A stretch of 10,441 nucleotides of DNA from NCBI GenBank assembly GCA_021106995.1, contig JAIOTG010000107.1:1-10441 (forward strand). Reading direction: 5' to 3'. Every line of letters begins with the position of its first letter. Within the stretch, counting starts at the first letter, position 1. A program made the position numbers and the translations under genes. This document shows, piece after piece, positions 431 through 10,441 of the stretch. Under the pieces are notes generated by a model. It saw only the letters and a list, made by a program, of their open reading frames with translations. It made no database searches and was not told the DNA's origin. The stretch is from a bacterium. Lineage in GTDB: Bacteria > Patescibacteriota > Patescibacteriia > Patescibacteriales > JAGXOH01.

Positions 431-465
431 TTTTAATGATATTATATAATAAAAATAAAATTTTT

Positions 466-921
466 ATGAAAAAAATATATTTATTACTGCTATTTATTTT
501 ATTTATTATTTTTGGGATTTTTTATTTGTATAGTTTAAATTTTGGTATATTTACAAAAGAAAAAGAGCAAAAAATCATTAATTATCAAGGTAATTTTAAA
601 GAGGTGGATGATAATGATGCAAGTTTTAACAATTCAATAACTAGTGGAATTGTAGTTAATATAGAGAAAGACTTCTTATACGTTGCTCCTTTCCCAGATA
701 GTAGTGAAAAGAGGAGAATTTTATTAGATAAAAAAACTAAATATATTAAGCTAAGGGTAGATTCTAATTATGGGGTTATTGACGAGAAAAATATAGGAAT
801 AAGTGATGTAAAATTAAAAGATTCCGTGGTGGTTGTCCCTAGATATTCCGACAAGGAGGGGGCATTAGATTTTAGCATAGCAGAAGAGGTGAGAATAATT
901 TTAGTTAATGATACTCAATGA
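466..921 (+). CDS. Small membrane-anchored or secreted protein, DUF5666-like
   Basis: The 151-residue product starts MKKIYLLLL, with two Lys followed by about 20 hydrophobic residues: a classic signal peptide or single N-terminal membrane anchor. An upstream in-frame ATG at 436 would add ten residues (MILYNKNKIF) before the Lys pair; the 466 start gives the better signal peptide, though neither has a clear Shine-Dalgarno. The rest is a small beta-rich domain: SGIVVNIEKDFLYVAP, later TKYIKL, then ISDVKLKDSVVVV, resembling DUF5666-type OB-like domains (a short strand, a second strand, then 'sdlk.Gd.V.V'). No catalytic motif is visible. Its TGA (919-921) overlaps the ATG of the PP-loop gene in an ATGA, implying translational coupling. 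The family assignment is tentative and the function unknown. Confidence 0.6.
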   Translation: MKKIYLLLLFILFIIFGIFYLYSLNFGIFTKEKEQKIINYQGNFKEVDDNDASFNNSITSGIVVNIEKDFLYVAPFPDSSEKRRILLDKKTKYIKLRVDSNYGVIDEKNIGISDVKLKDSVVVVPRYSDKEGALDFSIAEEVRIILVNDTQ

Positions 922-1895
922 GTTTAAACACAAAAACTTGTAAAAATTGTTTAATAAACAATCAAATTCCTTCTGTAGGAATAAATAATAATGGTCCTTG
1001 CTCTTATTGCGAAAGCCATTCTAAGCAGAAGGATTTTTCATATAAAGAAAAAATTTCTGCTAGAAATAATTTTGACAAAATAATAAACAAGACCATTTTA
1101 GGAAAGAGAAATAAGTATGATGTTTTGCTAATGTTGAGTGGAGGTAAAGACAGTTCTTATATTTTGAATCTCTTGAAGAAACAATACAAACTTAACGTTC
1201 TTGCTTGTTCAGTAATGCGCCCATTATTAAATTCGAAGGCTTTGGATAATATTGTTAAAATAACTAAAAAATTAAAGGTAGATTTTGAAATTTATCCTTT
1301 TGAAGAAAAGTTTTATCGTAATTTTCTAGGCAAGGGCTTGGTTTGGGGGTATAAGAATAATATGGGACCAAGTATAGGTTGTCAGCTCTGTTGTTATTTA
1401 AAAGATACGGTTTGTTTTAATATTGCTTTAAAAAATGGGGTTAAAATTATAGTATCTGGTTGGGATAAAAGTCAATCTTCAAGCCCAATTATTTTTTTTA
1501 AAGAACAAGACAAGAAGGAATATTTGGAAAATCAATATGGGGAAATATACAGATTATTTCTGAAGTTGTTTCCTGAATACAGAAACACTATCTATGATTT
1601 AAATCTAGATAGCATTGATTACAAAGAGTTTCCTTCAATAATTTCCCCTCTAACTTTTATAGATTATTCGATCGATTTGATGTATAAAGAATTAGAAAAA
1701 ATTGGTTTTTCTAAACATGACTTTTCCCCTTTGAAAACTAATTGTGATGCCTTGGAATTTTTTAATTATTTATCTTATAGCTATTATGGGAGTCATATAA
1801 ATACGATGAGTATATCTCGGGAAATTCGTAAAAATGGTTTTTTAAAAATTAATAACAAAGTTTTAGAAAAAAAAAGATTTAAAAAATTTTATTAA
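918..1895 (+). CDS. PP-loop (adenine nucleotide alpha-hydrolase) ATPase with CxxC motifs, C-terminally frameshifted
   Basis: The 325-residue product belongs to the N-type PP-loop ATPases, which adenylate a substrate before amidation or thiolation. Seen directly: two CxxC pairs at C8/C11 and C28/C31 in the pattern C..C......GxCxYC found in WbpG/PseA-type N-acetyl sugar amidotransferases; the PP-loop LSGGKDSS (residues 73-80); a central C155xxC158 followed by a helix and IIVSGWDKSQ; then ISPLTF and a lone C276. CxxC plus a distant third Cys also recalls the [4Fe-4S]-binding trio of TtuA/TtcA sulfur transferases, though the spacing here (117 residues) is longer. Either a sugar/peptide amidotransferase or a thiolation enzyme is possible; the substrate is unknown. 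It is translationally coupled to the gene at 466 and lies just upstream of the HXS cassette. The stop at 1893-1895 appears to result from a frameshift in an A9 run (see 1876-2055). Confidence 0.75.
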   Translation: MSLNTKTCKNCLINNQIPSVGINNNGPCSYCESHSKQKDFSYKEKISARNNFDKIINKTILGKRNKYDVLLMLSGGKDSSYILNLLKKQYKLNVLACSVMRPLLNSKALDNIVKITKKLKVDFEIYPFEEKFYRNFLGKGLVWGYKNNMGPSIGCQLCCYLKDTVCFNIALKNGVKIIVSGWDKSQSSSPIIFFKEQDKKEYLENQYGEIYRLFLKLFPEYRNTIYDLNLDSIDYKEFPSIISPLTFIDYSIDLMYKELEKIGFSKHDFSPLKTNCDALEFFNYLSYSYYGSHINTMSISREIRKNGFLKINNKVLEKKRFKKFY

Positions 1896-2055
1896 AGAGC
1901 ATCGTGATTTGATAAAAAATTATTCACAGCATAAACAGATAAAAGTGGAGGATTATCCAGTAGTTTATAATTTTTTAGGAGATGACGGATTTGGACTTAT
2001 GCTAAAACAAATTAAAAAAATTGATTATTATTTTAAATTTTTTCATTTAAGATAA
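1876..2055 (+). pseudogene. Displaced C-terminus of the PP-loop ATPase, +1 frame
   Basis: Directly after a run of nine A (1867-1875) the +1 frame is open for 59 codons to TAA at 2053-2055. It reads like real protein: DLKNFIKEHRDLIKNY, then VEDYPVVYNFLGDDGFGLML. It has no start codon of its own near the beginning, while the original frame gives only RFKKFY before stopping. With eight A instead of nine, the preceding gene would read through as ...VLEKKDLKNFIKEHRDL..., giving about 378 residues. The cause may be a homopolymer sequencing or assembly error, a true mutation, or a slippery tract that yields both products. Confidence 0.7.
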
Positions 2056-2058
2056 TTA

Positions 2059-2087
2059 TTGTTTTATTGTTTTTTTTGTGTTAATAT
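2059..2087 (+). promoter_or_regulatory. Candidate promoter for the hxs cassette
   Basis: TTGTTT (2059-2064), a 17-base spacer and TAATAT (2082-2087), preceded by TG at 2079-2080 as in an extended -10, lie in the only untranslated gap (2056-2116) before hxsD. Transcription would begin about 2094 and leave a leader of roughly 20 bases with a weak AAAGAA before the ATG. The -35 matches consensus only in TTG. Confidence 0.4.
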
Positions 2088-2116
2088 GTAAAAAATTCAA
2101 TTAATTTAAAGAATAT

Positions 2117-2497
2117 ATGAAAAATAGTATCGAATTTACAGTGAATGAAAAAATCTATCCCCTTGAGGCTTTATATGGGGCGAGTTATGTTTTTGTTGAT
2201 GATTTTTATATTTATTTAAATAAAAATCCTAAGGATGAAACAATAGTCAACATGAAAGGGAAGAAAAATTTATCCAAAGAGGATCTTGATATAGCAAGGG
2301 GGGAATTTCTAAATGAGCTTTTAAGTTATTCTTTAAGACTTAAAATATCCGATAGTAATAAAAAAATAAAAGAACTTATTGTTGGACAAGCCTTAGTTGG
2401 TAGTATTAGCAACGAGGATGAGGATGATTTTTACGAAGATGATCCTTTAGGGATAGCCGTTCCTTGGGAGGATAAGTATAAAAAAGATAAAAAATAA
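2117..2497 (+). CDS. hxsD: His-Xaa-Ser system protein HxsD
   Basis: This 126-residue protein shows the HxsD pattern: an N-terminal strand then YPLEALYGASYVFVDDFYIYL (residues 14-34), the core GEFLNELLSYSLRLKI (62-77), the helix IKELIVGQALVG (84-95), and a tail after an acidic stretch reading DPLGIAVPWEDKY (109-121). LLSYSLRLK corresponds to the LLNDYxLRE-like motif by which the family was defined. HxsD proteins are small non-catalytic partners in HXS clusters; a role in precursor binding or scaffolding for the radical SAM enzyme is usually supposed but is inference. It is the first gene of the cassette, 4 bases from the next gene. The ATG at 2117 is preceded only by a weak AAAGAA. The tail is unusually acidic (NEDEDDFYEDD), then lysine-rich. 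Confidence 0.82.
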   Translation: MKNSIEFTVNEKIYPLEALYGASYVFVDDFYIYLNKNPKDETIVNMKGKKNLSKEDLDIARGEFLNELLSYSLRLKISDSNKKIKELIVGQALVGSISNEDEDDFYEDDPLGIAVPWEDKYKKDKK

Positions 2498-2501
2498 AAA
2501 G

Positions 2502-2723
2502 ATGATTTGTGTTAATTTTAATAAAAAATTATATAATAAAAAGGCCATAGAAGGAGCTATTCAAATTTATAAGGATTGGGCAGATTTTAAGATAAGTGAC
2601 TTGAAAAAAGAAATAAAAGTCTGTTTAGAGATGAAGATTGGTAATGACGAAGAATATCTTAAGAATGAATTTTGTAATTATGTTTTAGTTTTAACAGGTG
2701 ATGTTAAAGTAAATGTTCTATGA
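2502..2723 (+). CDS. Short HxsD-like protein (second copy)
   Basis: This 73-residue protein lines up by eye with the preceding HxsD: VNFNKKLYNKKAIEGAI (4-20) against EFTVNEKIYPLEALYGAS, a middle strand EIKVCLEM (37-44), and LKNEFCNYVLVL (53-64) against RGEFLNELLSYSL. It lacks the C-terminal IVGQAL helix and the DPLGIAVPWE tail of the longer copy, so it is about the HxsD core only. It probably forms a heteromeric partner with HxsD or binds the precursor leader (inference). The start is 4 bases after the hxsD stop with an AAAAAG just ahead; its TGA overlaps the hxsB ATG in ATGA (2720-2723), tying its translation to the maturase. No catalytic residues are evident, and no similarity to the PqqD/RRE fold is obvious by eye. 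Confidence 0.6.
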   Translation: MICVNFNKKLYNKKAIEGAIQIYKDWADFKISDLKKEIKVCLEMKIGNDEEYLKNEFCNYVLVLTGDVKVNVL

Positions 2724-4165
2724 ATATCAACCACAAGAAAATAAACAAAAACAATATAAGTTTTTTTAGATTTAGAAAATTAGGAGATAATTATCTTCTG
2801 ACAAATCAAGCGGGTGATTTTATTTTTTTAAATGATAATAATTTTAAAAAATATATAGAGGGCGAGTTAGAAGAGGACTCACTTGTTTTTAAAGATTTGG
2901 CTAAAAAAGGTTTTGTAAATAAATCTTTAGACACAAAGAGGTTGGTAAAAAAATATCAGCAAAAAAACAATTTTTTGTTTACAGGGCCAATTTTGCACAT
3001 TTTAGTGACAACTTTGCGTTGTGATCAGGCTTGTATTTACTGTCACGCTTCAGCTAAAGATATGTGTGCTAAAGATACTGATATGGACAAAAAAACTGCT
3101 AAAGCTTCTTTAGATAAAATATTTAGCAGTCCAAGTTCGACAATTATAATAGAGTTTCAGGGTGGCGAAGCTTTAGCTAATTGGCCCGTGGTAGAATATG
3201 TGGTTAATAGAGCGAGAAAGAAGGCGAAGGAAACCGGGAAAGAGTTGGAGTTTTCTTTGGTTAGTAATATGAATTTGATGGATGAAGAGAAGTATGAATT
3301 TTTAATTGACAATAAAGTTAGTGTTAGTTTGTCTTTGGACGGTCACGCTCCTCTTCATAATAAGAATAGACCTAACAGAGAGGGAGGGAATAATTATAAA
3401 AATATTGCTAAGTGGGCAAAGAGATTTAATGACAATTATTTAAGTTTAGAAAAAAGGGGTTATATTTCTAAATTGGCTAGCATAAGCGTTGTTAGCCGAC
3501 ATTCCTTGCCTTTTTTTAAAGAAATAGTAGATGAACATATAAATTTAGGTTTTGATGAAATGTTTCTTCGTCCTTTAAATCCCTTCGGTGTTTCAGAGGG
3601 AATTTGGGATAAAATAAATTATTCCAGCGACGAGTTTTTGGAATTTTATAGAAATACTCTGGATTATGTAATTGAAAAGAATTTAGAGGGAGTTTTATTT
3701 AAGGAAAGGTTGTCAAAATTTTTTTTACAGAAAATTCTTACAGATACTGACCCTAACATGTTAGAGTTGAGGTCACCTTGTGGAGCTGGGACTGGACAGC
3801 TAGCCTATAATTATAACGGAGATGTATATACTTGTGACGAAGGCAGGATGTTAAGTATGATGGGAGATGAAAGTTTTAGGCTAGGCAATGTCTTCCAGAA
3901 TACCTACGAGGAAATAATAGATAGTCCCACAGTTAAGAGTCTTTGCACAGCTTCTTGTTTAGAGGGTTTGCCAGAGTGTAGCAGTTGTGCTTATATGCCA
4001 TATTGTGGTACTTGTCCTATTTATAACTATGTTGAACACGGAAATATATTCTCTCAAATGCCAAATAATGAAAGATGTAAGATGAATAAAGGCATCCTTG
4101 ATTATTTATTTGAAAAAATTAAAGATGAAAAAATAAAAAAAATATTTGAAAAATGGTTAAAATAG
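2720..4165 (+). CDS. hxsB: His-Xaa-Ser system radical SAM/SPASM maturase HxsB
   Basis: This 481-residue radical SAM enzyme is expected to modify the HxS repeats of the nearby precursor. The N-terminal ~60 residues (FFRFRKLGDNYLLTNQAGDF, 15-34, then a beta/alpha stretch) match the family's 'yfRFr.l...yLlTN.aGe...L' opening, which helps separate HxsB from other SPASM proteins. The SAM-binding [4Fe-4S] site is C101xxxC105xxC108 within LRCDQACIYCH; the GGE SAM motif is at 148-150. The SPASM region holds C354, C372, C409, C413, C420, C423, C429, C432 and C453, enough for two auxiliary clusters. The ATG overlaps the stop of the short HxsD-like gene. Length and layout are normal and intact. The known partner radical SAM enzyme HxsC is not present between here and either window edge. 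The exact chemistry on the peptide is not evident from the sequence. Confidence 0.87.
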   Translation: MNINHKKINKNNISFFRFRKLGDNYLLTNQAGDFIFLNDNNFKKYIEGELEEDSLVFKDLAKKGFVNKSLDTKRLVKKYQQKNNFLFTGPILHILVTTLRCDQACIYCHASAKDMCAKDTDMDKKTAKASLDKIFSSPSSTIIIEFQGGEALANWPVVEYVVNRARKKAKETGKELEFSLVSNMNLMDEEKYEFLIDNKVSVSLSLDGHAPLHNKNRPNREGGNNYKNIAKWAKRFNDNYLSLEKRGYISKLASISVVSRHSLPFFKEIVDEHINLGFDEMFLRPLNPFGVSEGIWDKINYSSDEFLEFYRNTLDYVIEKNLEGVLFKERLSKFFLQKILTDTDPNMLELRSPCGAGTGQLAYNYNGDVYTCDEGRMLSMMGDESFRLGNVFQNTYEEIIDSPTVKSLCTASCLEGLPECSSCAYMPYCGTCPIYNYVEHGNIFSQMPNNERCKMNKGILDYLFEKIKDEKIKKIFEKWLK

Positions 4166-4173
4166 TGTAAAAT
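4146..4173 (+). promoter_or_regulatory. Possible internal promoter for hxsA
   Basis: TTGAAA (4146-4151), a 16-base spacer and TAAAAT (4168-4173) overlap the end of hxsB. Transcription would start near 4180, almost at the hxsA ATG (4181), which has no Shine-Dalgarno; this would make a leaderless message. Precursor genes are often expressed more strongly than their maturases, which would fit, but A/T-rich DNA makes the match weak evidence. Confidence 0.3.
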
Positions 4174-4180
4174 AATATAT

Positions 4181-4420
4181 ATGAATAAAAATAATCTTCC
4201 TAAAATTAAAAAAGACATAAGTCGCTTCTTAAATAGTGAAGAAGGTAGGGTTAATAAAAAGGATATTCCAAAAATTGCTATGCGGATTGTTGCTTTAGGT
4301 ATTGGCTTGGCTGGGCTTATAAATCCTAGTTCAGGCAATGCTGCCTCTACTCATGCTTCTCATGGTTCTCACTCTTCTCACGCAAGTCACGCAAGTCACG
4401 CCTCTCATAGCAGTAAGTAG
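4181..4420 (+). CDS. hxsA: His-Xaa-Ser repeat precursor peptide HxsA
   Basis: This 79-residue precursor has three parts. A lysine-rich leader (1-35) contains SRFLNSEEGRVNKKDIPK, resembling the conserved segment before the core in HxsA proteins. A short hydrophobic helix follows (IAMRIVALGIGLAGLI, 32-47). Then come NPSSGNAAST and seven uninterrupted HxS triplets (58-78): HAS, HGS, HSS, HAS, HAS, HAS, HSS, ending in a lone Lys. The product is probably a ribosomally made, post-translationally modified peptide whose His/Ser residues are the substrate of HxsB. The charged-hydrophobic-small layout before GNAA also looks like a signal peptide with an AxA-like cut site, so the repeat may be exported (inference). 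It starts 15 bases after the hxsB stop, with no Shine-Dalgarno. The minus strand here has no convincing gene. Confidence 0.88.
   Translation: MNKNNLPKIKKDISRFLNSEEGRVNKKDIPKIAMRIVALGIGLAGLINPSSGNAASTHASHGSHSSHASHASHASHSSK
4352..4414 (+). repeat. In-frame tandem HxS-coding repeat
   Basis: Seven 9-base units encode the His-x-Ser triplets at the end of hxsA. The protein repeat is perfect in register but the DNA is only partly so: both His codons and several Ser codons (TCT, AGT, AGC) are used, and only CACGCAAGT is repeated exactly, twice in a row, near the 3' end. Conserved protein with varied codons points to selection on the peptide; the exact pair suggests recent unit duplication. Confidence 0.9.
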
Positions 4421-4466
4421 TTTTGATATAACGGTAATATTGGTTGTTAATAAATTTTAAGAAGAT

Positions 4467-6254
4467 ATGGGAAAAAATAAAAAAAAAACTATTTATAAGG
4501 ATTCTGTTTTTAGTTTATTTAAGTTCTTATCTCAGAAAAATAAAAATAAATTAGCACTCCAGTCTGTTTTCGGACTTAATTTAAGTTTTAAGGGATTATT
4601 TGAACAGCTGGATGTTTTAATAGGTAAGCTTCATAGTTTTGGAATTAAAAAAAATAATAGAATTGTAATTGTTTTACCCCAGGGGGTAGAGATGACCATG
4701 GCGTGTCTTTTGGGTCTTAGTTGCGCCTGTATCGCTCCTCTGAATCCTATTTATAAAAAAAAGGAGTTTGATTTTTATTTTTCTGATATTAAGCCCAGTC
4801 TTTTAATTACTTTAAGGGGCTTTGATTCCGAGGCTCTTAAAGTTGCTCAAGAAAAAAATATTCCAATAGCTCGCATATTCCTAAAAGGATTTGGGTTTGA
4901 TTTGGAATTGCCTCAAAACAAGGAAGTATCTACAGAAAGGGATTTGCCAGGTCTAGACGACATATCCTTGGTCCTACATACCTCAGGAACAACCTCAAAT
5001 CCCAAATTGGTTCCCTTGATTCAAAAAAATATAATTTTTTCAGCTAATAATACAATAGATTCTTTAGAATTGGGGGAAGATGATAGATGTCTAGATTTAA
5101 TGCCTATTTTTCATATTCATGGTTTGGTTGTGACATTGTCTGCTCTTTTTTCAGGCGGTAGCGTTATATCTGCGCCTAAATTTGAGAAGAACAAGTTTTT
5201 TAATTGGTTGGATGAATTTAAGCCTACTTGGTATACGGGTGTTCCAACAGTTCATCAGGTTATTATTAAAGAATCCAGAGAAAATAAAGAAATATTAGAA
5301 AAAAATAAAATTAAAAAAATTCGCTCTTCTTCTGCGCCTCTTTCACCAGAAATACTTTCTTCTTTAGAGGGTATTTTTAATTGTCCAGTTTTAGAGTCAT
5401 ATGGCATGACTGAGGCTGCATTACAAATTACCAGCAACCAACTTCCTCCAGGAAAAAGAAAGCCTGGCTCAGCCGGCAAAGCTAATAATTTGGAGTTAGC
5501 CATAATTGACGAAGAAGATAATTTTTTAGAAAAAAATAAATTAGGAGAAATAATAATCAAGGGAGAAAATGTGATGTCTGGCTATGAAAATAATTTAAAG
5601 GCAAACAAAGAATCTTTTATTAATGGGTGGCTTAGAACTGGAGATCTTGGTTATTTAGATAAAGACGATTTTCTTTTTATAAAAGGACGAGCTAAGGAAA
5701 TGGTTAATAGAGGAGGAGAAAAGATTTTTTTAAGAGAAATTGACGAAGCTTTGCTTAGAAATAATAAAATTGAACAAGGAGTTGGTTTTATTGCTCCTCA
5801 TCCCTCTTTAGGAGAAGAAATATTTGCAGCTGTGATTTTGAAATCCGGCAGAAAGGTAACCGAAAGGGATATTAAAGAAAAATTAAGAAAAAAAATTTCC
5901 GACTTTAAGATTCCTAAAAGGATTATCTTTGTCAGCGATATTCCTAAAGGTCCTTCAGGGAAATTAAAAAGAATTGATTTATACAACCAGTTGAAAAGAA
6001 AGGGTTATTTTGATAATATCCATAGGGATAGTGATAGGGGGGTCGAAAATACTTTAATAGATATTTGGAGGAAAGTTTTAGAAAAGGATAATATCGGTAT
6101 AGATGATAATTTTTTTGAACTAGGAGGTTCTTCTTTAGAATTAGTTGAAATTGTAACAGAGTGTAGAAAAAAAAATATAAAAATAGAATCTGATAAAATA
6201 CTTGAGTACCCTTCTGTTAAAGGTTTGGCCGAATTTATTAGGAATAATAATTAA
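4467..6254 (+). CDS. Acyl/aryl-AMP ligase fused to a C-terminal acyl carrier domain
   Basis: This 595-residue ANL-superfamily enzyme should adenylate a carboxylic acid with ATP and pass it to the phosphopantetheine arm of its own carrier domain, a typical chain starter. Adenylation motifs in order: LHTSGTTSNPKLVP (P-loop, 170-183), MPIFHIHGL (212-220), SYGMTEAALQ (311-320), GWLRTGDLGY (387-396), KGRAKEMVNRGGEKI (406-420) and PKGPSGKLKR (493-502) with the catalytic Lys at K499. Residues ~525-593 form the carrier domain with DNFFELGGSSLELVE; S556 is the expected phosphopantetheine site. The FHIHGL stretch resembles acyl-CoA synthetases rather than amino-acid-activating NRPS domains, so an acid starter seems likelier than an amino acid, but the substrate cannot be named. 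AAGAAG lies just before the ATG. It is 46 bases after hxsA and 3 bases before the acyltransferase gene. Confidence 0.88.
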   Translation: MGKNKKKTIYKDSVFSLFKFLSQKNKNKLALQSVFGLNLSFKGLFEQLDVLIGKLHSFGIKKNNRIVIVLPQGVEMTMACLLGLSCACIAPLNPIYKKKEFDFYFSDIKPSLLITLRGFDSEALKVAQEKNIPIARIFLKGFGFDLELPQNKEVSTERDLPGLDDISLVLHTSGTTSNPKLVPLIQKNIIFSANNTIDSLELGEDDRCLDLMPIFHIHGLVVTLSALFSGGSVISAPKFEKNKFFNWLDEFKPTWYTGVPTVHQVIIKESRENKEILEKNKIKKIRSSSAPLSPEILSSLEGIFNCPVLESYGMTEAALQITSNQLPPGKRKPGSAGKANNLELAIIDEEDNFLEKNKLGEIIIKGENVMSGYENNLKANKESFINGWLRTGDLGYLDKDDFLFIKGRAKEMVNRGGEKIFLREIDEALLRNNKIEQGVGFIAPHPSLGEEIFAAVILKSGRKVTERDIKEKLRKKISDFKIPKRIIFVSDIPKGPSGKLKRIDLYNQLKRKGYFDNIHRDSDRGVENTLIDIWRKVLEKDNIGIDDNFFELGGSSLELVEIVTECRKKNIKIESDKILEYPSVKGLAEFIRNNN

Positions 6255-6257
6255 TTT

Positions 6258-7499
6258 ATGTTTAATAACGTATTTTTATTTCCAGGGCAAGGTTCTCAAT
6301 ATGTGGGCATGGGTAAGTCTTTTTATGACAACAGTTCTTTAGCTAGAAAAAGATTTAAACAGGCGGATAAAGTACTTGGTTTTGATTTTACTAAACTATG
6401 TTTTGAAGGGCCGTATAGCGAGTTGAGTAAAGCAGAGAACATTCAGCCAGCTGTTTTGTTAATAAGTGTAATAGCGTTTGAGGCATGGATGAAAAAAATA
6501 GAAATCCCCCCAAGATTTTTAATTGGACACAGTTTTGGGGAATTGAGTGCTTTGGCCTGTTCTGGTGCGATTGATTTTGAAGATGCTATTAGAATAGCTA
6601 GATTAAAAGGGAAAATAGCGGTTGCTTTGGTTCAAGATAAAAGCGTTGCTATGTCCGTGATTAAAAATATTAATCAAAAGGATCTAGAAAAAATATGTGA
6701 GAAGGTGAGTAGTAAGGAAGAGTTTGCGTCTATAGGAGTTATTAATTCTAATAATCAGATAACTATTACGGGCTATAAAGACGCTATAGAAAAAGTTCAT
6801 AGTATCGTCAATAAAAAAGGAGGAGAATATCAAAAAATTAATACTGACGCCCCCTTTCACAGTAGTGTTTTAAGAGAAGGTGTTAATAAATTAAAAAAAG
6901 AATTAAATAAAATTAAAATAAACTCTTTTAAATATCCAGTTTTTTCAAGTACACGTTTAAGTTTTTATAAAAACAGTAAAGATGTTGTTGATATAATTAG
7001 CAATAGCTATATCGAAATGGTTGACTGGATAAAAACAATGGAATTTTTAAAGAAGGAAAATATTGATACCACAGTTGAGCTTGGTCCTCAAAAGATATTG
7101 ACTAATATAGTATCTGAGAATTATAAAGATTTCTGGCCTTATAGTTTCAGTAAATATGGCGATATTGATTTTCTTTTAGAAAAATTTAATTTGTCTGGGG
7201 ATAAAAAATATAACATTGTATCAAAATGTTTAAAAATAGCTGTTTGTTTAAAAAATAATAATGAAAACGAACTTGATTACGAGAAAAAAGTAATTAAGTC
7301 TTATAACAAGGTGTTTAAAGAGTTTGCTGTGAGTAAAGATAAAAAAATAGAGCTGTCACTTAATCAAGTTATAGAGGCTTTAAATATGTTAGATTTAATT
7401 ATGAAAATAAAGAAAGTTGATTCTGATGAGGTGAATGAAAGATGGAAAGAGGTTTTCGGTGGTGTTAAAATTAATAATAATTATGGACAAGAAATATAA
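6258..7499 (+). CDS. Stand-alone acyltransferase (FabD/trans-AT type)
   Basis: This 413-residue protein is a FabD-like acyltransferase that should load extender units onto the carrier domains of the AT-less PKS. Conserved parts: FPGQGSQYVGMG (8-19), the nucleophile motif GHSFGE with S92, APFHSS with catalytic H201, and VELGPQKILTNIV (273-285). Alignment by eye with E. coli FabD places K117 (RLKGKIA) where the malonyl-carboxylate-binding Arg normally sits, alanine in place of the following Met, and VDW (255-257) in place of PVQW. Substrate use may therefore differ from malonyl-CoA, or it may act as an acyl hydrolase. A lysine-rich, helical C-terminal extension of about 115 residues beyond the AT fold has no motif I recognise. 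It sits 3 bases after the ligase gene, and its last 17 bases overlap the PKS start. Confidence 0.85.
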   Translation: MFNNVFLFPGQGSQYVGMGKSFYDNSSLARKRFKQADKVLGFDFTKLCFEGPYSELSKAENIQPAVLLISVIAFEAWMKKIEIPPRFLIGHSFGELSALACSGAIDFEDAIRIARLKGKIAVALVQDKSVAMSVIKNINQKDLEKICEKVSSKEEFASIGVINSNNQITITGYKDAIEKVHSIVNKKGGEYQKINTDAPFHSSVLREGVNKLKKELNKIKINSFKYPVFSSTRLSFYKNSKDVVDIISNSYIEMVDWIKTMEFLKKENIDTTVELGPQKILTNIVSENYKDFWPYSFSKYGDIDFLLEKFNLSGDKKYNIVSKCLKIAVCLKNNNENELDYEKKVIKSYNKVFKEFAVSKDKKIELSLNQVIEALNMLDLIMKIKKVDSDEVNERWKEVFGGVKINNNYGQEI

Positions 7500-10441
7500 A
7501 AATAAAGACATTGCAATAATTGGTCTGTCTGCAAAATTGCCTAGCGCTAATTCTCTGGATGAGTTTTGGGATATTTTAGTGTTTGGAAAACAGGCATCTT
7601 CTGTTTTCTCTGAAAGAAGGAGGCAAGATATTTATGATTATTTGTCCTATATGGGTAGGGAACATTTTCCGGTTAAAGACGGCGTTTTTATGACTATTGA
7701 TGGAATGGATGAGTTTGATTATAAATTTTTTAACTTTTCTCCCAAAGATGCTAGTCTAACAGATCCTAATCAAAGAAAATTTTTAGAAACAGCCTGGTCA
7801 GCATTGGAAGATGCTGGTTATATGGGTGAGAAAATAAAAAACTCCGATTCCGGAATTTATGTGGGCACTTCTTCTGATTTTAATAGTCACGGAAGAGTGG
7901 TCAATGATTTATTCCCGGATTATATGAAAAACACTTCTCCGGCAATATTGGATCCATGCATAGCCAGTCGGATTGCTTATATCCTTAATTTAAAGGGACC
8001 TAATATGGTTATTGACACCGCTTGTTCATCTGCCTTAGTTGCTTTATTTAAGGCTTGTGAGGATTTAAGAAATAATCAATATAATATTGCTATTGCCGGA
8101 GGTGTTCATGTTGGCACTTTGCATGATAATTTGGGCAGAAGATCGGAAATTATCTCCCCGGAATATAAAACTAGAACTTTTGATGATTCTTCCTTGGGAA
8201 CCAACTGGGGAGAGGGTGTAATAGCCGTGGTATTAAAATTATTAGATAAAGCGATTGAAGACAAAGATAATATTCACGCAATAATAAAAGGAGGGGCAAT
8301 AAATCAAGATGGTTATTCTGGTAATTTAACAGCGCCTAACCCACAGGCGCAAGCCGAAGTATTAGAAAAGGCTTGGAAAGACGCTGAAGTTGATCCTGAA
8401 ACTATATCTCATATAGAAACTCATGGAACTGGGACACCCACAGGTGACCCTATAGAAATAGATGGTATAACTAGGGCATTTAAGAAACATACCAAGAAGC
8501 AACAATTTTGTGCCGTTGGTTCCGTTAAGTCTAATATAGGACACTTAAATAGTGTCTCTGGGATGGCTGGGGTTGTAAAATCTATTTTAGCATTGAAAAA
8601 TAAAAAGATTCCACCAACAGTAAATTTTAATTTTCCGAACCGTAAAATTAATTTTATTGATTCTCCGGTTTTTGTTAGTGATAAATTAGTTGATTGGGAT
8701 TGTGGTATTAATCCACGCAGATGTGGAGTTAGCTCTTTTGGTTTTAGTGGAACTAATTGTCATATAATATTGGAGGAAGCGTCTAAAATAAGAATTTCCA
8801 AACAAAAAGAGAAAAGGGATATTTTTACAATATCGGCCCGTTCACCTAGGGTTTTAGAAGAATATATTGAAATATATTTAGATTTTATAGAGAAAAATAA
8901 AGAAATACACTTAAACGAATTGTGCTATACAGTTAATACCGGCAGAGAGCATTTTGAATACAGAGTAGCAATTACAATAGATAGCGTTGAAGATTTAAGA
9001 AATAAATTAAATAAGTACTTAAACAAGAAAAAAGATAAAGAAATTTTTTATGGGGAAATTGGAAAGAGAAATTTTATTAAAGATAAAAAAACAGATAAAA
9101 AATATAAATCAGGTGATTTGAAATCTTTGGCAATTGATTATATTAAAGGAGAAATATTAAATTGGGATAAAATATATAAGAATAAAAGACAAAAAATAAG
9201 CTTACCTACTTATCCTTTTGAGAAAATAAGATGTTGGTTTGAAATAGATAAAAATGATAAGAAGATAAACAACCACCAAAAGGAATTGTCCTATCCCTTA
9301 GTGCATAGTTTACTTACAGAATCCATGGATCAGGATATTTATCAATCATATTTAGATCCTTCAAAAAGTGAGTTGTTATCCGAGCATATAGTTGGTGATA
9401 ATTTAATATTAGTAGGCAAGGCTTCAGTTGAAATGGTCGTCAATGTTTGTGTAGAGAAATTTGGTTTAGGTAATTTTATTATTAAAAACTCTAAGCATTT
9501 AAATCCAATTATTTTTTTCGAAAATGAGGGCAAAAAGGTTCAGATAATTGTTAAAAAGAAAGAGGATGCATTTAATATATCAATAATAAGTTACTTAAAT
9601 TCTAATAATTGGGTCAAAAATTTTAATTGTGAAGTTGAGGTTAAAAAAGTTAAAGAAGATAAAAGCCTTAGCTTAAAAGATGTATTGGCTGATTTTAAAG
9701 GAGAAAAAATAATAAGGCACTACCAAATCAATGATCATAAATCTCTTTATTTTAGCAAGAGATGGGATATTGTTAAGTCAATAAATTATAAAGTAACAAA
9801 AAAAATGATAGATGACGAAATTTTGGTTGAAATAAGGGTTAAAGACGAAAATATAGGAGAGGCAGAGGGCTATATTTTATATCCTCCGTCTCTTGATAGA
9901 ACTCTACCCATAGACGGGGTGAAGGAAATATTGGGTTCTAATTCGGTTTATTTACCAGAATCCTATGGTCAGATTGAGATTTATAAAAAATTACCTACTC
10001 ATTTTTATTCTCACGTGATTAATTTTAGGGAAAAAGACTCCAAATCTTTATTTATATTTGATATTTACGTTTTTGATAAAGATGGTAGCTTGGTTTTGAA
10101 AATGAAAGATTGTATATCAAAAAAGGTTACTAGAAAAGGAGATGAGTTAAAAGAAAATCTTTACTATACTCCTAAGTGGAAAGAAGTCGATAATGAGAAA
10201 GATGCGAAAGATAACAATATTAAAAGCAGTGATTCTAATAAGAACATATTGATTTTTAAGAATTCTAGCTCTATTACAGAGGGAATATCTAAATGTTTAG
10301 TTGGAAAAAGAAAGATAGAAATTAAGTTAGGGAGAGAATATAAGAAGATTAATAAAGACAAATATGTTGTAGGTAATAACCAGAGTGACTTTGATAGATT
10401 ATTTAAGGAATTAAAAAAAGAGAAAATAAATAAGATAATAA
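7483..10441 (+). CDS. trans-AT-type polyketide synthase, KS-DH-KR start (3' truncated by the window)
   Basis: The frame is open from ATG 7483 to the right edge: 986 residues with no stop. A ketosynthase fills residues ~8-432 with an intact triad: C181 in DTACSSA, H314 in ETHGTGTPTGDP, H354 in SNIGHLNS. The KS ends GTNCHIILEEA and is followed not by an acyltransferase but by the linker typical of trans-AT synthases, closing LPTYPFEKIRCWF (574-586). A hot-dog dehydratase-like domain (~604-885) has H635 in EHIVGDNLILV and D805 in PPSLDRTLP, but lacks the Gly and Pro of HxxxGxxxxP and the Gln of DxxxQ. From ~893 (YYTPKWKEV, then NILIFKN) the structural half of a ketoreductase seems to begin. The start overlaps the AT gene by 17 bases. 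The chain-elongation role is clear; the number of modules and the product are not. Confidence 0.88.
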   Translation, partial: MDKKYKNKDIAIIGLSAKLPSANSLDEFWDILVFGKQASSVFSERRRQDIYDYLSYMGREHFPVKDGVFMTIDGMDEFDYKFFNFSPKDASLTDPNQRKFLETAWSALEDAGYMGEKIKNSDSGIYVGTSSDFNSHGRVVNDLFPDYMKNTSPAILDPCIASRIAYILNLKGPNMVIDTACSSALVALFKACEDLRNNQYNIAIAGGVHVGTLHDNLGRRSEIISPEYKTRTFDDSSLGTNWGEGVIAVVLKLLDKAIEDKDNIHAIIKGGAINQDGYSGNLTAPNPQAQAEVLEKAWKDAEVDPETISHIETHGTGTPTGDPIEIDGITRAFKKHTKKQQFCAVGSVKSNIGHLNSVSGMAGVVKSILALKNKKIPPTVNFNFPNRKINFIDSPVFVSDKLVDWDCGINPRRCGVSSFGFSGTNCHIILEEASKIRISKQKEKRDIFTISARSPRVLEEYIEIYLDFIEKNKEIHLNELCYTVNTGREHFEYRVAITIDSVEDLRNKLNKYLNKKKDKEIFYGEIGKRNFIKDKKTDKKYKSGDLKSLAIDYIKGEILNWDKIYKNKRQKISLPTYPFEKIRCWFEIDKNDKKINNHQKELSYPLVHSLLTESMDQDIYQSYLDPSKSELLSEHIVGDNLILVGKASVEMVVNVCVEKFGLGNFIIKNSKHLNPIIFFENEGKKVQIIVKKKEDAFNISIISYLNSNNWVKNFNCEVEVKKVKEDKSLSLKDVLADFKGEKIIRHYQINDHKSLYFSKRWDIVKSINYKVTKKMIDDEILVEIRVKDENIGEAEGYILYPPSLDRTLPIDGVKEILGSNSVYLPESYGQIEIYKKLPTHFYSHVINFREKDSKSLFIFDIYVFDKDGSLVLKMKDCISKKVTRKGDELKENLYYTPKWKEVDNEKDAKDNNIKSSDSNKNILIFKNSSSITEGISKCLVGKRKIEIKLGREYKKINKDKYVVGNNQSDFDRLFKELKKEKINKII

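What the first reader, a model, noticed from the sequence alone, without database searches (positions are those of the whole stretch)
2117..10441. HXS peptide-modification cassette directly joined to a trans-AT PKS operon
hxsD, an hxsD-like gene, hxsB and hxsA are followed after 46 bases, with no visible terminator and on the same strand, by a ligase-carrier protein, a free acyltransferase and an AT-less PKS. I know HXS cassettes as self-contained peptide loci, not as neighbours of polyketide assembly lines. Either this is a hybrid pathway (for example, an acylated or polyketide-capped His/Ser peptide) or two systems share a transcript. The hybrid idea is inference; the adjacency is seen.
Basis: partly seen in the sequence, partly recalled or inferred. 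Interest (0 to 1): 0.8.

Follow-up and report, generated by a model that had tools for sequence, protein, structure and literature searches.

The report
Polyketide assembly line inside HXS locus
A small uncultured Patescibacteria genome carries a ribosomal-peptide modification cassette (HXS) joined to a polyketide assembly line, and the same unusual pairing appears in a second family of its order, which suggests a real combined biosynthetic locus rather than chance neighbours.

Summary
The adjacency is real. HxsD, HxsD-like and HxsB pass NCBIfam cut-offs; HxsA is below cut-off but has the repeats. A ligase-ACP, a free FenF-like AT and an AT-less KS-DH-KR follow after 46 bases, with no terminator-like site. 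The pairing recurs: of 111 genomes of the order (own included), 7 have HxsB and 2 have this KS, both beside HXS. The second, Falkowbacteria RIFOXYA2_FULL_47_19, is in another family. One of its contigs carries HXS, GNAT, AT, ligase-ACP and KS; another carries NRPS, aminotransferase, PPTase and an array of HxsC-like radical SAM genes. Elsewhere in Patescibacteria such arrays usually follow HXS within 10 kb (8 of 9 loci). So the assembly line probably sits inside the HXS locus, between hxsA and the array. The window's own genome has an array fragment on another contig. HxsB and AT trees group the two systems; KS and ligase trees do not settle it. Of 80 HxsB loci in named genomes only Falkowbacteria shows the pairing. 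One joint product is unproven.

The parts
2117..2497 (+). hxsD
   Evidence: NCBIfam TIGR03976 64.1 bits, cut-off 50
2502..2723 (+). hxsD-like gene
   Evidence: NCBIfam NF038315 63.0 bits, cut-off 41
2720..4165 (+). hxsB, radical SAM/SPASM peptide maturase
   Evidence: NCBIfam TIGR03978 521.9 bits, cut-off 370; Pfam Radical_SAM + SPASM; groups with HxsB of G051 and G059, 99/95 in a 20-row tree
4181..4420 (+). hxsA, His-Xaa-Ser repeat precursor (79 aa)
   Evidence: NF038309 40.4 bits, below cut-off 65; repeats and leader aligned with 8 other HxsA peptides
4421..4466 (+). 46-base joint between the HXS cassette and the assembly line, without a terminator-like site
4467..6254 (+). AMP-forming acyl ligase fused to a carrier domain
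   Evidence: Pfam AMP-binding, AMP-binding_C, PP-binding; best NCBIfam FadD7-type, below cut-off; best PDB relatives oxalate-CoA ligases; 42% over 592 aa to the didomain protein of G051
6258..7499 (+). free malonyl-type acyltransferase with C-terminal extension (FenF/BamD-like)
   Evidence: Pfam Acyl_transf_1; fabD model 235.7 bits, below cut-off 260.9; GHSFGE at residue 90, APFHS at 198; matches 1-351 to BamD and up to residue 391 to Paenibacillus and Niallia ATs; sister to the G051 AT, 95/95 in a 10-row tree
7483..10441 (+). AT-less PKS: KS, post-KS linker, DH, start of KR; runs off the contig
   Evidence: KS motifs DTACSS 178, HGTGT 314, NIGH 351; DH His and Asp at about 633 and 801 of the protein starting at 7483, though the His motif departs from the usual pattern (recalled); no AT domain found

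Best explanation
The window is the left part of one large biosynthetic locus in which a lipopeptide-style assembly line is embedded in an HXS ribosomal-peptide system, between hxsA and an array of HxsC-like radical SAM genes. Inferred working: the ligase activates a carboxylic acid (probably scavenged) and loads it on its own carrier domain; the free AT supplies malonyl units; the KS-DH-KR module, and in the Falkowbacteria relative further KS and NRPS modules, extend the chain; HxsB with the HxsD proteins and HxsC-like enzymes modifies the His-Xaa-Ser core of HxsA. The two branches serve one exported product or one coordinated product set. Attachment of the acyl/ketide chain to the modified peptide is the boldest form and is not shown. 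SHOWN: the genes and their order, the pairing in two families, and, in G051, assembly-line genes on one contig with the HXS cassette and on another contig with the HxsC-like array. INFERRED: that these contigs adjoin, that the window joins the array fragment of its own genome, the chemistry, and the joint function.
For: Same-strand, tightly spaced genes, no terminator-like site. KS (E<=1e-30) in 2 of 111 order genomes, own included; both have HxsB on the same contig, about 3.3 and 9.0 kb before the KS. At E<=1e-40: 2 of 380 in the class sample; 1 of 379 in the phylum sample, which returned the own genome only and evidently did not draw G051. G051 contig C10: hxsD, hxsD-like, hxsB, two hxsA, GNAT, an ORF without Pfam match, AT, ligase-ACP, two ORFs, ACP-KS; the gene before its hxsD is 62% identical to that before hxsD in G059 of the same family, which argues against contamination. 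G051 contig C24: C-A-PCP-C, class III aminotransferase, PPTase, glycosyltransferase, then radical SAM genes. Five of these C24 radical SAM genes were scanned in NCBIfam: four score best on HxsC4 or HxsC, all below cut-off, one on NirJ2. They run nearly parallel with genes downstream of HXS in Portnoybacteria (43-69% identity, with two local changes of order). Own-genome contig C2 has three complete genes that score best on HxsC4/HxsC (below cut-off), in the same order as on C24 (69, 44, 52% identity). PPTase found in 1 of 8 genomes tested: G051, inside this locus. AT sister pair 95/95; HxsB clade window + G051 + G059 99/95.
Against: Only two of the genomes examined have it. G059, close by HxsB, has no such KS; G045 has only a weak KS match (26%, E 8e-20). 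Gene order differs (ligase-AT-KS here, AT-ligase-...-KS in G051). In G051 a hairpin with a T-run follows hxsA2 (seen by eye, folded, not listed by the scan), and one search lists strong + strand terminator-like sites after the GNAT, the next ORF, the ligase and two later ORFs, so there it is not one transcript. The KS tree does not group the two (grouping not rejected, AU p 0.203) and ligase support is only 65/59. No PPTase or condensation domain was found in the window's own genome (84% complete). No end overlap joins C10, C15 and C24; C66 and C2 are not joined. A scanned radical SAM gene of the Portnoybacteria region scores best on STM4011, not HxsC.
Confidence: 0.6

Rival explanations
1. 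Two independent products share a biosynthetic island: the assembly line makes a lipopeptide or lipid and the HXS system makes a modified peptide, with shared position and perhaps regulation but no chemical meeting.
For: G051 has terminator-like hairpins between and within the sets; HxsB occurs without this KS in 5 of the 7 order genomes that have it and in 79 of 80 named loci; the iturin-like KS and AT and the class III aminotransferase of G051 fit a lipopeptide pathway of its own.
Against: In G051 assembly-line genes adjoin HXS-type genes on both sides, so they seem to lie inside the locus rather than at its edge; this KS type was found in no other of the 111 order genomes.
Confidence: 0.3
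2. Neutral neighbourhood: the PKS was acquired near HXS by chance in a shared ancestor and has simply not moved.
For: One joining event may be enough (AT sister pair, HxsB clade); rare distribution.
Against: The adjacency has survived divergence to 34-45% protein identity while gene order within the set changed; KS and AT motifs are intact.
Confidence: 0.07
3. Assembly or binning artefact in the window contig.
For: Fragmented assembly of 130 contigs, 84% complete; the contig ends inside the PKS.
Against: An independent assembly shows the same adjacency; GC is 0.31 across hxs, ligase, AT and PKS; an own-genome array fragment matches the relative.
Confidence: 0.03

Closest known systems
HXS (His-Xaa-Ser) peptide-modification system (HxsA/HxsB/HxsC/HxsD)
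   Same: HxsB, HxsD and HxsD-like pass NCBIfam cut-offs; a repeat precursor lies beside them; HxsC-like genes exist in the same genome
   Different: HxsC-like enzymes come as an array and, by inference, are separated from hxsA by a PKS; HxsA and the HxsC-like proteins score below family cut-offs
Iturin-type lipopeptide synthase front end (FenF/BamD + MycA/BamA; here the bacillomycin D genes of NZ_CP083716)
   Same: Free AT of about 400 aa with C-terminal extension next to the KS gene; KS 41% over 606 aa to BamA; an acyl ligase + carrier present
   Different: Ligase is a separate gene, 22.6% identical to the BamA ligase region and nearer to oxalate-CoA ligases; KS is followed by DH-KR rather than the aminotransferase of MycA/BamA (recalled); HXS genes attached
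Trans-AT (AT-less) polyketide synthases
   Same: KS module without AT domain and a discrete AT; top PDB KS hits are a 'putative polyketide synthase' (7zma) and PksL, with entries named AT-less polyketide synthase further down
   Different: One module visible before the contig ends; CurL, which I recall as a cis-AT enzyme, is among the top ten PDB hits too
RiPP-polyketide or RiPP-fatty acyl hybrids (goadvionins, lipolanthines, selidamides)
   Same: Ribosomal precursor and acyl/ketide-making genes in one locus; G051 has a GNAT-family gene after hxsA2, the superfamily used in selidamides (PMC9505594, passages)
   Different: Different precursor and radical SAM chemistry; no joining enzyme identified in the window; no product known

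Membership tests
HXS system | HxsB radical SAM/SPASM maturase | tested here: met
   TIGR03978 521.9 bits, cut-off 370
HXS system | HxsD and HxsD-like proteins | tested here: met
   TIGR03976 64.1 (cut-off 50); NF038315 63.0 (cut-off 41)
HXS system | HxsA precursor with His-Xaa-Ser repeats | tested here: inconclusive
   Repeats and shared leader present, but no HxsA model reaches its cut-off (best 40.4 of 65)
HXS system | HxsC second radical SAM enzyme | tested here: inconclusive
   None in the window; three genes on own contig C2 score best on HxsC4/HxsC but below cut-off, and C2 is not joined to the window
HXS system | Modified HxsA peptide produced | not testable with these tools
   Needs expression and mass spectrometry
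trans-AT PKS | KS module without an integrated AT | tested here: met
   KS, linkers, DH, KR prefix; no AT domain found
trans-AT PKS | Discrete AT in the cluster | tested here: met
   6258-7499, Acyl_transf_1, catalytic motifs present
trans-AT PKS | Multimodular assembly line | tested here: inconclusive
   Contig ends in the first module; G051 has three KS on C10 and C15
Iturin-type lipopeptide synthase | FenF-like AT next to the KS gene | tested here: met
   BamD match 1-351; Paenibacillus and Niallia ATs up to residue 391
Iturin-type lipopeptide synthase | Ligase, carrier, KS and aminotransferase in one protein (recalled definition) | tested here: not met
   Ligase is a separate gene and KS is followed by DH-KR; a class III aminotransferase is a separate gene in G051
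RiPP-polyketide hybrid | Precursor and PKS genes in one locus | tested here: met
   Window and G051
RiPP-polyketide hybrid | Acyltransferase that joins chain and peptide | tested here: inconclusive
   No candidate in the window; GNAT-like gene after hxsA2 in G051 (PF00583, 27.9 bits, cut-off 20.7), substrate unknown
RiPP-polyketide hybrid | Covalent hybrid product | not testable with these tools
   Needs mass spectrometry

The most novel reading that the evidence does not exclude
A Patescibacteria lineage that brings its own carrier-protein activating enzyme makes a new class of hybrid natural product: a His-Xaa-Ser repeat peptide modified by HxsB and a battery of HxsC-like radical SAM enzymes and capped by an acyl-polyketide/nonribosomal chain, perhaps joined by the GNAT or the terminal condensation domain seen in the Falkowbacteria locus.
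Probability: 0.25. Interest if true: 0.92.

Novelty: new variant of a known kind. Interest (0 to 1): 0.72.

Why it matters
The four papers found for HXS terms (I read passages of one, PMC9062424, and only the listing of the others) report no HXS product in what I saw, and no paper that I found joins HXS with a polyketide synthase; the library holds open-licence papers only. Patescibacteria/CPR are reduced bacteria, described as unable to synthesise membrane lipids (PMC7242380, start of abstract in the listing). A PKS/NRPS line with its own PPTase (Falkowbacteria), apparently inside an HXS locus and recurring in two families, makes the question of what HXS peptides become testable by expression, and suggests a small-molecule route by which these bacteria might act on hosts or neighbours.

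Tried and rejected
Contamination or chimera: judged unlikely from the independent G051 assembly, GC and the matching array fragment. Widespread pairing: not found; tblastn of ligase, AT and PKS on the 80 kept HxsB loci hit only L051. KS elsewhere in HXS genomes: 3 of 21 genomes reached through named loci had a KS match at E<=1e-30. In Portnoybacteria G454 it is a KS protein beside a large AT-like and a PPTase-like ORF (judged from sequence starts) on the same 420-kb contig, about 50 kb from HxsB; in G461 and G471 it lies on contigs other than that of HxsB. None counts as the pairing. Sister relation of the assembly-line genes: AT yes (95/95, 10 rows, long branches), ligase weak (65/59, 7 rows), KS unresolved (10 rows); outgroups are plasmid-borne relatives only, so sampling is thin. 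Iturin identity of the ligase: rejected (22.6%). No Rfam match at gathering scores. HxsB relatives in viral contigs: 7 loci, not followed. Structure prediction and fold searches were not used. Literature: searches were read as listings; passages were read of PMC9062424, PMC9505594 and PMC9902471. No title or abstract start listed concerned HXS with PKS or a PKS of Falkowbacteria. The paper that PMC9062424 cites for HXS (Haft and Basu) was tried by a recalled DOI, is not held and was not read. FenF/MycA architecture, goadvionin enzymology beyond and residue motifs are recalled.
Full report
WHAT IS THERE. The window is a complete 10,441-bp contig (G000:C66) of an assembly of 799,289 bases in 130 contigs, 84% complete. 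That it is a Patescibacteria genome is inferred from its relatives: a genome of the same order is Candidatus Falkowbacteria. On the + strand, NCBIfam and Pfam name hxsD, an hxsD-like gene, hxsB, an HxsA-like repeat peptide, an AMP-forming ligase fused to a carrier domain, a free AT, and a KS-linker-DH-KR protein that runs off the contig. HxsD, HxsD-like and HxsB pass curated cut-offs; HxsA does not, but shares leader and repeats with the eight other peptides aligned. Neighbouring genes lie 4, -4, 15, 46, 3 and -17 bases apart. No terminator-like site was found in 1800-7600 (0 against 2.0 in shuffles), and promoter-like matches do not exceed shuffles (20 against 25.0), so a shared transcript is plausible but not shown. 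KS and AT carry their catalytic motifs; the DH keeps His and Asp, though its His motif departs from the usual pattern (motif knowledge recalled).

IS THE PAIRING CONSERVED. Of the 111 genomes of the order searched, own included, HxsB passes its cut-off in 7, the window's KS (E<=1e-30) occurs in 2 and NRPS condensation domains in 1 (G051). The two KS genomes, G000 and G051, belong to different families, and both have HxsB on the same contig, about 3.3 and 9.0 kb before the KS. The chance that both fall among the seven is 0.0034, without adjacency and without correction for common descent. At E<=1e-40 the KS is in these two of 380 class genomes; of a 379-genome phylum sample only the own genome was returned. 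A weaker KS match in G045 (26%, E 8e-20) is not of this kind. G051 is Candidatus Falkowbacteria RIFOXYA2_FULL_47_19, recognised by a contig of the same 86,302 bases and gene order (MFGB01000010.1, L051).

WHERE THE ASSEMBLY LINE SITS. Nine of the 58 loci bear Patescibacteria-type titles; in 8 of these 9, at least three ORFs with a CxxxCxxC motif lie within 10 kb after hxsB, and the ninth is Falkowbacteria, with none (a crude motif count). In G051, contig C10 carries hxsD, hxsD-like, hxsB, two hxsA genes, a GNAT, an ORF without Pfam match, AT, ligase-ACP, two ORFs and an ACP-KS at its end. C15 is a 2,588-aa open stretch with C-A-PCP-KS-DH-ACP-KS and three carrier stretches in all. C24 begins in a KR-like stretch (read from sequence), then C-A-PCP-C, class III aminotransferase, PPTase, glycosyltransferase and radical SAM genes. 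Of five C24 radical SAM genes scanned in NCBIfam, four score best on HxsC4 or HxsC and one on NirJ2, all below cut-off. C24 genes run nearly parallel with those downstream of HXS in Portnoybacteria (43-69% identity; aminotransferase and glycosyltransferase swapped and one radical SAM gene displaced); the one Portnoybacteria radical SAM gene scanned scores best on STM4011. Thus in G051 assembly-line genes adjoin HXS-type genes on two contigs, one on each side. That C10, C15 and C24 adjoin is inferred: no end overlap was found, but KS matches lie only on C10 and C15 and condensation domains only on C15 and C24. The own genome has a 3,450-bp contig (C2) with three complete HxsC-like genes and part of a fourth, in the order of C24. 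This predicts that the missing part of the window's locus, perhaps with a PPTase, lies between C66 and C2. PPTase was found in 1 of 8 genomes tested, in the G051 locus.

ORIGIN. HxsB of the window groups with those of G051 and G059 (99/95, 20 rows). The two ATs are sisters (95/95) in a 10-row tree with long branches. The ligases group only weakly (65/59) and the KS domains are unresolved, with the pairing not rejected (AU p 0.203). Among the plasmid relatives sampled the window KS is nearest to Niallia, Paenibacillus and BamA, and the AT to the G051 AT and then BamD-type ATs, C-terminal extension included. This fits a Firmicutes-like lipopeptide front end; the ligase is of another kind, nearest in the PDB to oxalate-CoA ligases.

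HOW IT MAY WORK. Shown: gene content, order, recurrence, KS and AT motifs. Inferred: the ligase loads a starter acid on its carrier domain, the free AT supplies malonyl units, the KS-DH-KR module extends and processes the chain; HxsB and HxsC-like enzymes modify HxsA. A chemical meeting of the two is possible. The Falkowbacteria locus has a GNAT after hxsA2 and a terminal condensation domain; GNAT enzymes acylate ribosomal peptides in selidamides, and a review names lipolanthines and goadvionins as RiPP lipopeptides hybridised with polyketides (PMC9505594, passages). Against it: no joining enzyme is in the window, and G051 has terminator-like hairpins between and within the two sets, so separate products remain a strong rival.

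JUDGEMENT. HXS systems, AT-less PKS and RiPP-polyketide hybrids are known kinds. A PKS/NRPS apparently embedded in an HXS/HxsC-array locus of Patescibacteria did not turn up in the literature searches made (listings), so I rate it a new variant of a known kind.

Noticed in passing
window 918-2054: The WbuX-like gene (TIGR03573, 93.1 bits, below cut-off 203.2) stops at 1895 just after an A-run, and an open stretch in another frame continues to about 2054: possible frameshift or assembly error; not mended.
   Followed up: partly
window 436-921 and 2-253: A 161-aa ORF with an N-terminal hydrophobic stretch (by eye) and an open-ended 83-aa tail; neither has a Pfam match.
   Followed up: no
L051-L130, downstream of hxsB: Three or more radical SAM-motif ORFs follow hxsB within 10 kb in 24 of 58 loci with 5 kb or more downstream, in Patescibacteria, Elusimicrobiota, Omnitrophota, Schekmanbacteria and others.
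   Followed up: partly
L055 and L056: HxsB of a Schekmanbacteria and an Azambacteria genome are sisters (100/100), which suggests transfer between phyla or a binning error.
   Followed up: no
L033:11155-13815 (G059): The gene after hxsA is an 886-aa CoA-binding/ATP-grasp acyl-CoA synthetase fused to a GNAT domain, another acyl-activating neighbour of hxsA.
   Followed up: no
L146:4880-11011 (G454, Portnoybacteria): KS protein, large AT-like protein and PPTase-like ORF about 50 kb from HXS on the same contig, judged from sequence starts.
   Followed up: partly
L049: Two KS domains of the Falkowbacteria line are 73% identical over 416 aa, which suggests recent duplication.
   Followed up: no
L149-L155: Seven HxsB relatives (26-37% best-segment identity) on contigs catalogued as viral in IMG/VR.
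   Followed up: no
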